The position numbers were made by a program, and so were the translations under genes. 16,915 nucleotides of DNA, taken from the NCBI GenBank assembly GCA_946479335.1, contig CAMLFP010000082.1, positions 1 to 16,915 of the forward strand, written 5' to 3'. Positions 1 through 5,941 of this stretch are shown piece by piece (within the stretch, counting starts at the first letter, position 1; every line of letters starts with the position of its first letter). The DNA is from an uncultured Archangium sp. Its GTDB lineage: Bacteria > Myxococcota > Myxococcia > Myxococcales > Myxococcaceae. The notes beneath the pieces are model-generated. The model was not told the origin of the DNA, did not search any database, and was given only the letters and a program-made list of their open reading frames with translations.

Positions 1-912
1 CAGCGGGGCTGCCGGGGGCGGTGGTGCGATCGCCGCTGACGCGGGCGGAGGAGGGGCGAGCACGCCGCTCGTCCTCACGGCCGGCGGAGGCGCGGCCGCA
101 GCGGGAGGCACCGCTGGCGCCGACTGCGTCGGGGCGCGTGGCGGAGCGGGAGGCACTGCAGCAGGAGGTCGCGCTGCGCCGACAGCACCGGGAGGAATCG
201 CGGCGACCGGCGGCCGCGGCGCACCCGGAGGAACCGCGGCGACTGGCGGACGCGGCGCACCCGGAGGAACCGCAGCGACGGGCGGACTCGCGGCACCGGG
301 CGGAATCGCGGCACCGGGCGGAACTGCAGCGACGGGCGGAATCGCGGCACCGGGCGGAACCGCAGCGACGGGCGGAACCGCAGCGACGGGCGGACGCGGC
401 GCGCCCGGAGGAACTGCGGCGACCGGCGGAAGCGCGCTGCTCGGAGGGCGGGGCGCACAGGGCGGAACCTCCTGCGCCGGCGGACGCGGCGCGACCGGCG
501 GAGCCGCAGTGATCGACGGAACCGTGCCGCTCGGCGGGCGGGGCGCGCCCGGAGGGACGGCGGGCGTCGAGAGGGTCGGCGTCCGCGCTCCCGGCGTCGC
601 CGGGTTGACGGGCGTGGCGATGGCCGGCCCCACGGCAGGGAGCCCACCCTGCGTCGGGCGCTGCGGAGGCTGACCTGCGCCCGAGCCGGAGCCGGGGCGC
701 TGCGGTGGTTGCCCCACGCCCGACGCGGAGCCGGGACGTTGCGCGGCGCCTGCCGGCTGCGGCGTGACGCCTGACTGCGCAGGCTGGGCGGCGGGCGCGA
801 CGGGCGGCACCATGGGCGCGACGGTCGGCGCCGCCGTGATGGTGGGCAAGCGGGGCGCCGCCACCGGTGGCGCGGCGGGCGGCTTTCTCGAATTGTCGGA
901 GCCGTTCGACAT
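1..912 (-). CDS. Pro/Ala-rich hexapeptide-repeat protein, partial (C-terminus beyond window)
   Basis: The minus-strand frame from the ATG at 912 stays open for all 304 codons to the window edge. It begins MSNGSDNSRKPPAAPP and is dominated by Pro and Ala, with some Val, Gly and Arg. I see no Phe, Trp, Tyr or His, almost no acidic residues, no signal peptide and no membrane segment, so the visible part is probably extended and disordered. Residues about 120-244 are an array of six-residue units (PPVAAV, PPGAPR, PPGAAI); before it are two copies of a 13-residue unit like RPGSGSGAGQPPQ. The start lies 9 nt after the stop of the Hsp70 gene, in the same frame, with AAGG 12 nt upstream, so it is probably translated by coupling in one operon. 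I do not recognise the family. A folded or membrane domain may follow beyond the window. The plus-strand and other minus-strand frames here are Arg-rich shadows of the repeat. Confidence 0.8.
   Translation of the reverse strand, partial: MSNGSDNSRKPPAAPPVAAPRLPTITAAPTVAPMVPPVAPAAQPAQSGVTPQPAGAAQRPGSASGVGQPPQRPGSGSGAGQPPQRPTQGGLPAVGPAIATPVNPATPGARTPTLSTPAVPPGAPRPPSGTVPSITAAPPVAPRPPAQEVPPCAPRPPSSALPPVAAVPPGAPRPPVAAVPPVAAVPPGAAIPPVAAVPPGAAIPPGAASPPVAAVPPGAPRPPVAAVPPGAPRPPVAAIPPGAVGAARPPAAVPPAPPRAPTQSAPAVPPAAAAPPPAVRTSGVLAPPPPASAAIAPPPPAAPL
181..555 (-). repeat. 18-bp coding tandem repeat (hexapeptide array)
   Basis: Read on the minus strand, this stretch is about 20.8 units of 18 bp, each encoding six residues starting with Pro-Pro. 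The first seven units (555-430) are degenerate, e.g. PPGAPR, PPSGTV, PPCAPR, PPSSAL. From 429 to 181 there are 13 well-kept units plus a partial one, mostly alternating PPVAAV with PPGAPR or PPGAAI. Unit boundaries never break the reading frame. Near-identical neighbouring units suggest expansion by slippage or unequal exchange, so copy number may vary between strains and short-read assemblies may misjudge it. Confidence 0.9.
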
Positions 913-921
913 GCGCTGCGG

Positions 922-2517
<1,596 letters not shown>

Positions 2518-2663: not shown

Positions 2664-3467
2664 ATGTCGCAGTTCTTGTGTCTCGTCACCTCCGATGCCG
2701 CGCTCGTGCGCTGTGAGTTGGACCGCGTGCGGGAGCGCTTTTCACCCGATGGCGGGCAGGTCGTCGGTGTGGGCGGTTGGCAGGACAATCAGGTGGTCTC
2801 CCGGAGCTACGGCGTGGGGGTGCCCCGAGATGACGCGTGGCAGGCACCCGATTCGGAGATGGTGGTGCTCTCGAGCCGCAAGCTCGAGGTCGGCGAGGGC
2901 GTCGAAGACTCTTCGCAGCCGTTCCGCTTCCGCCGGTGGTTGTTCTCGGCGGTCGGCCCGCTGGAGCGCGGCGCCGCGATTCGGGATCGCCTCCGCGAGG
3001 AGCTCCCGGAGTTCCTCCAGAACGCGGTGCCCAGCGCGGCCTGGGAGGCGGCGGCGTTCGCCCGTTTCCTCGGCGAGCTCCGGAACCTCGGCCGCATGGA
3101 AGACGCATCGCTCGACGCGGTGACCGCGGGCGCGTGCCTGAGCGCCGCGGCGAAGGCCATCGAGCAGCTCTCCGCGGCGGTGGGGGTGACGGCGCGCCCG
3201 TCGTTCTCGCTGCTCGCCAGCAATGGCCGGGTGGCGGTGGCGACTGCGCGTGGTGGCGCCGCCGTTTCGTACACGTTGCTCGAGGGGCGCGCGGAGTGCG
3301 CGCGGCACGCGTTGACGGCCGACGCGAAAGATTCCCAGCCGATCGTGAAGGACCACCTGCGTCGTCGCTCGGTGGTCATCACCTCCGGCGAGGCGAACGG
3401 GTGGCTCACGTTGAACGACGGCGCGACGCTGGCGGTCGACCGGCTCCTCAACGTCACGCTGCGCTGA
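2664..3467 (+). CDS. Class II glutamine-amidotransferase-like protein (Ntn fold) with Ser2 in place of Cys2
   Basis: A 267-residue protein resembling the YafJ/GATase_4 type of class II glutamine amidotransferases, whose N-terminal Cys attacks glutamine to release ammonia. The match is in overall pattern: an N-terminal strand MSQFLCLV, a QPFRFRRWLF segment (85-94) where the family has HPF...W.FaHNG, SLLASNGRVAVATA (182-195) like the family's LSDG block, and VVITSGEANGWLTLNDG (237-253) like its VVASEPL...W..vp.g block. Key residues are missing: position 2 is Ser, HNG is replaced by SAVG (95-98), and no DSE is seen. It may be a non-catalytic relative, or use Ser as an Ntn nucleophile. Cys6 and Cys17 exist but are misplaced for the role. 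It diverges from the Hsp70 gene across 146 bp and converges with the CPBP gene 3 bp away, so it is transcribed alone. Family assignment is moderate; the function is unknown. Confidence 0.65.
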   Translation: MSQFLCLVTSDAALVRCELDRVRERFSPDGGQVVGVGGWQDNQVVSRSYGVGVPRDDAWQAPDSEMVVLSSRKLEVGEGVEDSSQPFRFRRWLFSAVGPLERGAAIRDRLREELPEFLQNAVPSAAWEAAAFARFLGELRNLGRMEDASLDAVTAGACLSAAAKAIEQLSAAVGVTARPSFSLLASNGRVAVATARGGAAVSYTLLEGRAECARHALTADAKDSQPIVKDHLRRRSVVITSGEANGWLTLNDGATLAVDRLLNVTLR

Positions 3468-3470
3468 AGG

Positions 3471-4168
3471 TCAGCCGAAGAAGCTGGCGTCGAGCACCTT
3501 CACCAGCAGGTTCGACGTGCCATGCAACAGCGCCGCGCCGATGATCGAGTTGTTGCGCTCGCGCATCCACCCGAAGATCAACGCGGGGAAGAAGACCGCC
3601 AGGCGCCACGCCTGGAAGATGGCGAGGTGGCCCAGCGCGAAGAGCACCGCCGTCAGCCAGAACGCGGGCCCCAGGCGCGCGCCGAAGAACACGCGCCCCT
3701 GCGGCCACGCGTCGCGCAGGCGCGTCTGGAGGTAGCCCCGGTAGAAGAGCTCCTCGGGGATCGCGACCACGAAGAGATCATCGATGACCCACTCCGCGAA
3801 GCGCGGCGGCAGCCGGAACTCGAAGTGCGGCGCGGTGGTGTACGGCGTGAACAGCCGAACCCATTCTCGCGGGAGATGCGGCAGCGCCCACATCGACAGC
3901 GCGTACCCGGCGATGAACACCGGGAAGATGACCGCCGCCACCCGGAGGAACTGCCGCACGTCGGCGCCCAGCGCTCGCGAGGAGAAGCCGTATTCGGGCC
4001 AGTCTTCGCCCCGCGCCTTGCCCGCCAGCAGCGGCAGGTAGAGGAAGCCCACGGTGGCGATGACCTTGCCGGCCGGCGGGTAGCTCAAGAACCCGACGAG
4101 GATCGCCGCGAAGCACACGGCCCAGACGGTGACGGCCTCGGCGGCGGCGGAGCGCGGGAGCGGCAGCG

Positions 4169-4172
<4 letters not shown>
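3471..4172 (-). CDS. CPBP-family intramembrane glutamic endopeptidase
   Basis: A 233-residue polytopic membrane protein with the three CPBP (Abi/Rce1-like) motifs: EELFYR (140-145, EExxxR), FALGH (178-182, FxxxH) and HGTSN (217-221, HxxxN). Glu140/141, His182 and His217 would form the active site inside the membrane. Hydrophobic segments lie at about 14-30, 37-50, 76-96, 132-140, 168-186, 191-203 and 209-228. The ATG at 4172 overlaps the kinase stop as ATGA, so translation is coupled; an upstream in-frame extension to 4244 is Arg-rich kinase shadow. This superfamily includes CAAX proteases, bacteriocin-immunity-like proteins and, in Myxococcota, the myxosortases that process MYXO-CTERM proteins. 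I cannot tell which subfamily this is, and no MYXO-CTERM substrate is in the window. Last gene of the polX-kinase-CPBP unit. Confidence 0.88.

Positions 4173-5941
<1,769 letters not shown>

What the first reader, a model, noticed from the sequence alone, without database searches (positions are those of the whole stretch)
1..912. Open Pro/Ala protein built on a hexapeptide array, tied to an Hsp70 gene
The minus strand is open for 304 codons with about 21 six-residue units starting with Pro-Pro, mostly alternating PPVAAV with PPGAPR or PPGAAI, and no aromatic residues. It directly follows a lidless Hsp70 gene. A long polyproline-II-like arm encoded beside a specialised chaperone could be a scaffold, a client or a tethering arm. 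I know of no described system with this pairing. Periodicity and frame are seen; the role is inference.
Basis: partly seen in the sequence, partly recalled or inferred. Interest (0 to 1): 0.7.

Follow-up and report, generated by a model that had tools for sequence, protein, structure and literature searches.

The report
Pro/Ala arm of Hsp70's J-protein partner
The proline- and alanine-rich sequence is most likely the long floppy front arm of a helper protein (a J-domain co-chaperone) that works with the shortened Hsp70 encoded just before it, and in related myxobacteria a third gene for a membrane protein with a Hop/Sti1-like tail follows, which suggests a membrane-docked chaperone machine.

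Summary
In detail: 1-912 (-) is an open 304-codon Pro/Ala frame without F, W or Y, starting 9 nt after a lidless Hsp70 gene and running off the window. In relatives the frame continues into a J domain plus a helical, TPR-like C-terminus, so it is very probably the N-terminal arm of an Hsp40-type co-chaperone; the window itself ends before any J domain. The pair recurs in 38 of 39 testable loci of this Hsp70 clade; the J-protein family is found in 163 of 195 genomes of the phylum. The arm (119-789 aa in 45 of 47 sequences analysed) belongs to the Myxococcaceae-type loci; composition is conserved, the hexapeptide is not.

Beyond the finding: there jdp is followed by cvpA (53 of 56 top-scoring loci), whose tail resembles the Hop/Sti1 DP domain. 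All six PF17830 hits among 189 genomes fall on this gene, only one above cut-off. More distant orthologues carry a long acidic tail with a conserved end motif on the Hsp70 instead. By gene order the locus corresponds to MXAN_2747/2745 of M. xanthus, studied singly in print. Proposed role: spacer of a membrane-docked Hsp70 machine; untested.

The parts
1..912 (-). N-terminal Pro/Ala arm (304 aa visible) of a J-domain protein gene; J domain and C-terminal domain inferred to lie beyond base 1
   Evidence: ORF; orthologues with in-frame J domain
178..501 (-). 18 uninterrupted PPxxxx hexapeptide units (aa 138-245)
   Evidence: DNA periods
877..912 (-). Start segment MSNGSDNSRKPP, similar to starts of full-length J proteins (e.g. 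P0021 MSNGSDNTGKPP, P0024 MSNGSDNSGKPP)
925..928 (-). AAGG across the hsp70 end, 12 nt before the ATG: weak ribosome-binding-site candidate, would suggest translational coupling
   Evidence: sequence printed; function inferred
922..2517 (-). Lidless Hsp70 (531 aa): NBD + SBD-beta, no SBD-alpha

Best explanation
Bases 1-912 encode the N-terminal, unfolded Pro/Ala arm of a J-domain co-chaperone dedicated to the lidless Hsp70 encoded directly upstream. Shown in relatives: Hsp70 gene, J-protein gene and, in the same lineage, a CvpA membrane-protein gene follow one another on one strand; the J protein is arm + J domain + helical TPR-like C-terminus; the CvpA tail resembles the Hop/Sti1 DP domain. 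Inferred: the J domain triggers the Hsp70 ATPase in the usual way; the arm is an uncharged, extended, repeat-built spacer whose length and composition rather than sequence matter, letting a J domain docked elsewhere (best guess: at the inner membrane near CvpA-STI1) reach clients and Hsp70 at a distance; the STI1-like tail holds hydrophobic client segments that a lidless Hsp70 grips weakly. Likelihood of each step: arm of a J protein 0.93; works with this Hsp70 0.8; three-gene membrane-docked machine 0.4; arm as spacer/tether 0.5.
For: J domain by Pfam in 4 of 4 orthologues scanned (L003, L004, L010, L013; E 1.4e-13 to 2.9e-12, cut-off passed). Same-strand J protein after the Hsp70 in 38 of 39 testable clade loci. 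Arm >=100 aa in 45 of 47 sequences, P 0.232-0.405, A 0.133-0.304, aromatics <=0.018. Window start resembles J-protein starts. One high-scoring family member per genome in 10 of 11 genomes (221-240 bits; next best match anywhere 83; the exception G011 has 71). Arm of L010 predicted as coil, mean pLDDT per 10 residues 47-71, J domain and C-terminus up to 98. CvpA next in 53 of 56 loci, PF02674 in 23 of 23. STI1 evidence: PF17830 above cut-off in L025; 10 of 10 tails that I had picked for visible DP-like repeats match at E<=1, best 2.3e-10; the two Hop/Sti1 entries rank first and third in a PDB profile search (human HOP E=9.5e-4, yeast Sti1 0.009 and, fifth, 0.07); 6 of 6 genome hits lie on this gene (against JDP places).
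Against: The window stops before any J domain and no longer version of its own protein was found. The arm is missing from much of the family, so it is not needed for pairing. No experiment on arm, CvpA or docking was found. Whole-model fold search of CvpA gave no match at E<=0.001. Of 8 CvpA proteins with a shown PF17830 score, 2 pass the cut-off (L025, G159). In the PDB profile search de novo designed proteins score among Hop and Sti1. M. xanthus MXAN_2745, if the orthologue, was reported to bind the housekeeping MxDnaK1 (PMC11019930, passages read), so it may not be exclusive to its neighbour. CvpA was not found next to the pair in the acidic-tail loci nor in L024, L026, L044, L142, L149-L152.
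Confidence: 0.6

Rival explanations
1. The arm is tolerated low-complexity drift: repeat slippage in GC-rich DNA lengthens a harmless N-terminus, and only J domain and C-terminus work.
For: Arm length ranges 119-789 aa and the weak best repeat lags differ between genomes; orthologues without arm exist.
Against: Composition is held (no Cys in any of 45 arms, though the window's arm has one; aromatics <=1.8%), and a K-P-P-like start is kept in 37 of 45; 45 of 47 sequences keep the frame open through the arm.
Confidence: 0.3
2. The arm is a protein-binding bristle: poly-Pro segments dock a specific partner (SH3-like, profilin-like or the STI1-like groove) rather than acting as a spacer.
For: A large array of PP motifs; of 41 loci whose J domain lies more than 120 aa into its frame (L125 set aside), 40 have an STI1-like CvpA next (my own tail profile).
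Against: No recurrent motif beyond the start segment: the longest identical string shared with any fetched relative is 10 residues. Co-occurrence may be shared ancestry, since both traits sit largely in one lineage, and L018, L023 and L025 have the tail without the arm.
Confidence: 0.2
3. The frame is not a gene, or is a stand-alone Pro/Ala protein unrelated to chaperones.
For: Two minus-strand frames have no stop here; the ORF alone finds no relative at E<=0.001; the window shows no domain in this ORF.
Against: Syntenic relatives with a similar start and composition run in frame into a J domain.
Confidence: 0.05

Closest known systems
Myxococcus xanthus MXAN_2747 (Hsp70) and MXAN_2745 (J-domain protein)
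   Same: MXAN_2747 is the one of six studied Hsp70s said to have a much shorter SBD-alpha; MXAN_2745 is a J-domain protein two tags away; MXAN_2743 is ClpX3, which lacks the ClpX N-domain, and an AAA/ClpX-like gene follows cvpA in M. dinghuensis L004. Gene order therefore points to the same locus.
   Different: Mapped by gene order only, no sequence comparison. The passages read mention neither arm, adjacency, CvpA nor STI1. An M. xanthus J protein in the database (P0049) has 287 aa, while close relatives L157/L158 (148 and 147 of the last 150 residues identical) read 803 and 859 aa.
E. coli HscC with DjlB/DjlC
   Same: Specialised Hsp70 with J proteins encoded nearby, membrane-linked (PMC8215388, passages read)
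   Different: The review draws HscC with an SBD-alpha and short tail; DjlB/C are tail-anchored. A Pro/Ala arm or CvpA partner is not mentioned in the passages read.
E. coli DnaK-DnaJ (dnaK-dnaJ gene pair)
   Same: Hsp70 gene followed by J-protein gene; 46% Hsp70 identity
   Different: DnaK has lid and tail; DnaJ has its J domain at the N-terminus (recalled; solved E. coli DnaJ pieces match at residues 2-67).
Hop/Sti1 and chloroplast Tic40
   Same: DP/STI1 domain linked to Hsp70 work; Tic40 is a membrane protein with such a domain (recalled)
   Different: Hop is soluble with TPR domains (recalled); here the DP-like tail sits on a CvpA-type multi-span protein and mostly scores below the Pfam cut-off.
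Nostoc DnaK1-DnaJ3
   Same: Dedicated bacterial Hsp70/J pair acting at the cell envelope (PMC9239167, passages read)
   Different: dnaK1 lies between grpE and another J gene (dnaJ11), not dnaJ3; linked to type IV pili and polysaccharide.

Membership tests
Hsp70 (window 922-2517) | NBD with ATPase motifs and SBD-beta | tested here: met
   PF00012 E=7.9e-182, residues 5-520; invariant blocks with E. coli DnaK
Canonical DnaK | alpha-helical lid (SBD-alpha) | tested here: not met
   Ends 27 aa after SSGL; E. coli DnaK and L050 continue
Canonical DnaK | NCBIfam DnaK cut-offs | tested here: inconclusive
   NF001413 648.3 vs 648 passed; TIGR02350 628.8 vs 822.55 not
J-domain protein (window ORF 1-912) | J domain with HPD in the window's own protein | not testable with these tools
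   Window ends in the arm; no genome held
J-domain protein (orthologues) | J domain with HPD | tested here: met
   PF00226 in 4 of 4 scanned; in 32 aligned proteins P is invariant and H and D are at least 90% conserved, L038 and L040 being exceptions
Class A/B J proteins (DnaJ, CbpA type) | Zn finger / DnaJ C-terminal beta domains | tested here: not met
   Only PF00226 plus weak TPR found in L003, L004, L010, L013; C-terminus of L010 helical. So class C in form
CvpA/Colicin_V (gene after jdp in relatives) | PF02674 membrane domain | tested here: met
   23 of 23 members; four long N-terminal helices in the L004 model
Hop/Sti1 co-chaperones | STI1/HOP DP domain | tested here: inconclusive
   Above cut-off in L025 and G159 with neighbours; 6 other shown scores below; profile finds HOP first in the PDB, with designed proteins among the next rows
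Hop/Sti1 co-chaperones | TPR domains that bind Hsp70/Hsp90 tails | tested here: inconclusive
   No TPR family among the 20 Pfam families matched by the 23 CvpA proteins at E<=1; NCBIfam gives L004 a weak TPR-end match (17.9 bits, cut-off 32) on the DP-like tail

The most novel reading that the evidence does not exclude
Myxobacteria carry a bacterial counterpart of a Hop/Tic40-type organiser: a lidless Hsp70, a J protein on a long Pro/Ala boom, and a CvpA membrane anchor whose STI1 tail keeps hydrophobic client segments in place of the missing lid. Disordered extensions at the hsp70-jdp junction switched side during evolution: an acidic tail ending in F-x(3-6)-[DN]-L-[SAG] on Hsp70 in some lineages, a Pro/Ala arm on the J protein in others.
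Probability: 0.25. Interest if true: 0.82.

Novelty: new variant of a known kind. Interest (0 to 1): 0.58.

Why it matters
Hsp70s are taught as needing a lid to hold clients. A conserved lidless Hsp70 with a dedicated J protein and a possible STI1-bearing membrane partner offers a compact natural system to ask what the lid does and whether other parts can replace it. If the STI1-like tail is real, a Hop-type module exists in a bacterial Hsp70 operon, which the listings of my paper searches did not show. The arm also gives a natural series (none to 789 aa) for testing spacer length in J-protein action, and public gene models often cut it off (6 of 8 database proteins matched exactly to my loci start inside the arm).

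Tried and rejected
A search with the arm alone found nothing (7996 candidates scored, none at E<=0.001), as expected for biased composition. I suspected Hsp70-J fusions from open frames of 638-817 aa in some genomes; one search shows separate frames in the fetched ones, where the J frame merely stays open across hsp70 (for L146 no Hsp70 match was found in the same stretch). A link to the kinase at 4169-5929 was considered: a near full-length match near hsp70 occurs in L001-L003 only; L034, L035, L037, L041 and L057 show shorter matches of 193-250 aa. Rejected: StkA-type locus (stkA is followed by an SCP2 gene, PMC4319316, passages read). Foldseek on the whole CvpA model gave 0 matches at E<=0.001 and VIA's rows cover the membrane part mainly; an STI1 or TPR fold is not thereby excluded. 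Phage similarity of hsp70 was uninformative. Selection tests on the arm were not run.

Results against my reading and rows dropped: L042 has 5982 nt downstream and no J match. The clade split is mine: L001-L046 and L048 by identity rank and the missing lid; identity alone does not separate the groups (lowest inside 53.0% for L044, highest outside 54.6% for L070), and L046 and L070 end before the lid region. In L014 and L173 the arm frame breaks before the J domain. In one search L186 had no Hsp70; L048 and L185 are the same contig, so 45 sequences are 44 distinct. For the arm survey I took 42 of the 52 hits plus 2, leaving out 10 whose J domain lay near a contig end. The 58 loci are top-scoring J-protein hits, so mostly arm-type and Anaeromyxobacter-type. 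There L125 counts as a CvpA miss and as 'arm' by frame length; the same contig as L017 showed CvpA; the other two misses are L086 and L087. The 2 'arm-less' loci with STI1 tail (L113, L137) are contig ends that cut the arm. STI1 presence was scored with my own profile from A5, not with Pfam. The control genomes gave one match below cut-off (Bacillus subtilis).

Full report
What was checked. The minus strand of 1-912 is open for 304 codons from ATG 912 and runs off the window. It is 32% Pro and 24% Ala with no F, W or Y, and it holds 18 unbroken PPxxxx units at aa 138-245. The self-match at lag 6 is far above shuffles (0.47 against at most 0.34 in 2000). The Hsp70 gene ends 9 nt before the ATG.

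The Hsp70. Window 922-2517 (531 aa) matches Pfam HSP70 over residues 5-520. Aligned with E. coli DnaK (46% identity) it keeps the NBD and SBD-beta blocks and stops 27 residues after SSGL, where DnaK goes on into the lid. 'Lidless' is therefore right. In ten genomes searched there was one Hsp70 of 72-86% identity to it and no other match above 51%, so it is a distinct orthologue.

What the Pro/Ala ORF is. Immediately downstream in relatives lies a J-domain protein (Pfam DnaJ in 4 of 4 scanned). In the Myxococcaceae-type loci this protein begins with a Pro/Ala arm of the same composition and a similar start. I put L001-L046 and L048 (47 loci) into the orthologue clade by identity rank and missing lid. 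By my own J profile, 38 of them have the J protein downstream on the same strand, 8 end before it could be seen, and 1 (L042) is a true miss. The other 33 loci (L047, L049-L080) are a paralogous Hsp70, with a lid in the 32 that reach that far; none has this J protein downstream, and 30 have a weaker J match elsewhere in the locus. In whole genomes the J protein is found at E<=1e-30 in 52 of 59 of the family of G004 and 163 of 195 of its phylum.

The arm. In 45 of 47 sequences analysed the arm is 119-789 aa (median 341), P 0.232-0.405, A 0.133-0.304, aromatics at most 1.8%, no Cys. Both exceptions (L014, L173) have a frame break inside the arm. The repeat unit differs: weak best lags are 10, 19, 23, 27, 28, 32 and others, so the window's hexapeptide is a local repeat, not a conserved motif. 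A K-P-P-like start is kept in 37 of 45. The J proteins end in F-[KR]-I-[KRT] in 41 of 47. AlphaFold2 on L010 shows the arm as coil with low confidence, and confident J and C-terminal helices; Foldseek matches the J part to solved J domains (best E 2.3e-3), and a profile search gives human DNAJA3 (Tid1) E=4.8e-18. Of the 14 arm-lineage loci (L001-L012, L014, L048), 6 contigs end inside the arm or just before it, as the window does; repeats probably break assembly here (inference).

Where the arm is absent. In L013 and L015-L026 (Anaeromyxobacter and others) both proteins are short. In 15 loci between L027 and L045 the lidless Hsp70 instead has an acidic tail (97-346 aa, D+E 0.22-0.36), and 13 of 15 carry F-x(3-6)-[DN]-L-[SAG] in the last 60 residues, against 0.22 expected by shuffling (L041, cut by its contig, was left out; the pattern was written after seeing the tails, so the excess is descriptive). 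Long disordered extensions thus occur on either side of the hsp70-jdp junction in different lineages.

The third gene. In the arm lineage and its sisters the next gene is cvpA: PF02674 in 23 of 23 proteins, found after jdp in 53 of 56 loci with 700 nt of room (top-scoring J loci, so not a random sample). In the first locus set it was found in 30 loci, and not in the acidic-tail loci nor in L024, L026, L044, L142 and L149-L152. The CvpA tail carries DP-like repeats: PF17830 STI1-HOP_DP passes the cut-off in L025 (35.4 bits against 29.1; 40.7 for the tail alone); 10 of 23 CvpA proteins match at E<=1, as do all 10 tails that I picked for visible repeats. A profile of these tails finds human HOP (E=9.5e-4) first in the PDB and yeast Sti1 at 0.009 (third) and 0.07 (fifth); de novo designed proteins and a proteinase stand between them, so this is suggestive only. 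Searching 189 genomes with PF17830 gave six hits at E<=1e-3, one above cut-off, and all six lie at the gene after jdp (places compared). Of 41 loci whose J domain lies more than 120 aa into its frame (L125 set aside), 40 have the tail by my own profile; the exception is the L010 locus. Both traits may simply share ancestry, and L018, L023 and L025 have the tail without an arm.

Known counterparts. In M. dinghuensis L004 an AAA/ClpX-like gene follows cvpA on the other strand. In M. xanthus MXAN_2743 is ClpX3, without the ClpX N-domain (PMC11423568, passages read); MXAN_2745 is a J protein that bound MxDnaK1 exclusively of the two DnaKs tested (PMC11019930, passages read); MXAN_2747 is the Hsp70 with a much shorter SBD-alpha, whose deletion lowers sporulation and oxidative resistance and which does not replace E. 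coli DnaK (PMC8265645, passages read). Order and features point to this locus; MXAN_2746 may be an ORF called inside the arm (inference). Papers holding MXAN_2745-2747, 3015 or 3016 number two in the held library. Searches around lidless Hsp70, Pro-rich J proteins, CvpA with DnaK, and STI1 in bacteria (top rows of listings only, apart from passages of PMC13083928, PMC8215388 and PMC9239167 read) showed no report of this combination; most subscription papers are not held.

Mechanism. Most likely the J domain drives the neighbouring Hsp70 and the arm is a length-tuned spacer; the CvpA tail may hold hydrophobic segments at the membrane for a lidless Hsp70. Only gene order, domain content and conservation are shown; every functional step is inference. 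Filing: new variant of a known kind (Hsp70/J-protein pair), not a member of canonical DnaK because the lid is absent. The recount changed some numbers but none of the odds.

Noticed in passing
L027-L030, L032-L040, L043, L045 (Hsp70 C-termini): Lidless Hsp70 with acidic tail carrying a conserved F-x(3-6)-[DN]-L-[SAG] motif near its end in 13 of 15: a likely docking motif.
   Followed up: partly
L002, L003, L004, L006, L009, L014, L018, L023, L025, L048, L146 (cvpA after jdp): CvpA-family membrane proteins with an STI1/HOP DP-like tail in the hsp70-jdp operon.
   Followed up: partly
window 4169-5929 (-): Ser/Thr kinase with PilZ, a weak J-like stretch (PF00226 E=0.041, below cut-off, residues 433-500) and weak TPR.
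   Followed up: no
window 2664-3467 (+): Divergent gene beside hsp70 without a Pfam match, with a relative near the Hsp70 in 17 of 80 loci at 28-47% identity; weak NCBIfam similarity to EgtC, below cut-off.
   Followed up: no
window 3471-4169 (-): CPBP/Rce1-like membrane protease gene, also near the Hsp70 in Anaeromyxobacter-type loci.
   Followed up: no
L047, L049-L080: A second Hsp70 type with lid, often with a J match upstream; may correspond to MXAN_3016/3015 (inference).
   Followed up: no
P0006, P0022, P0029, P0035, P0073, P0101: Database J proteins that start inside the arm; the frame is open further towards hsp70.
   Followed up: yes
C-termini of the J proteins: Short conserved end F-[KR]-I-[KRT] in 41 of 47 J proteins of the arm survey.
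   Followed up: no
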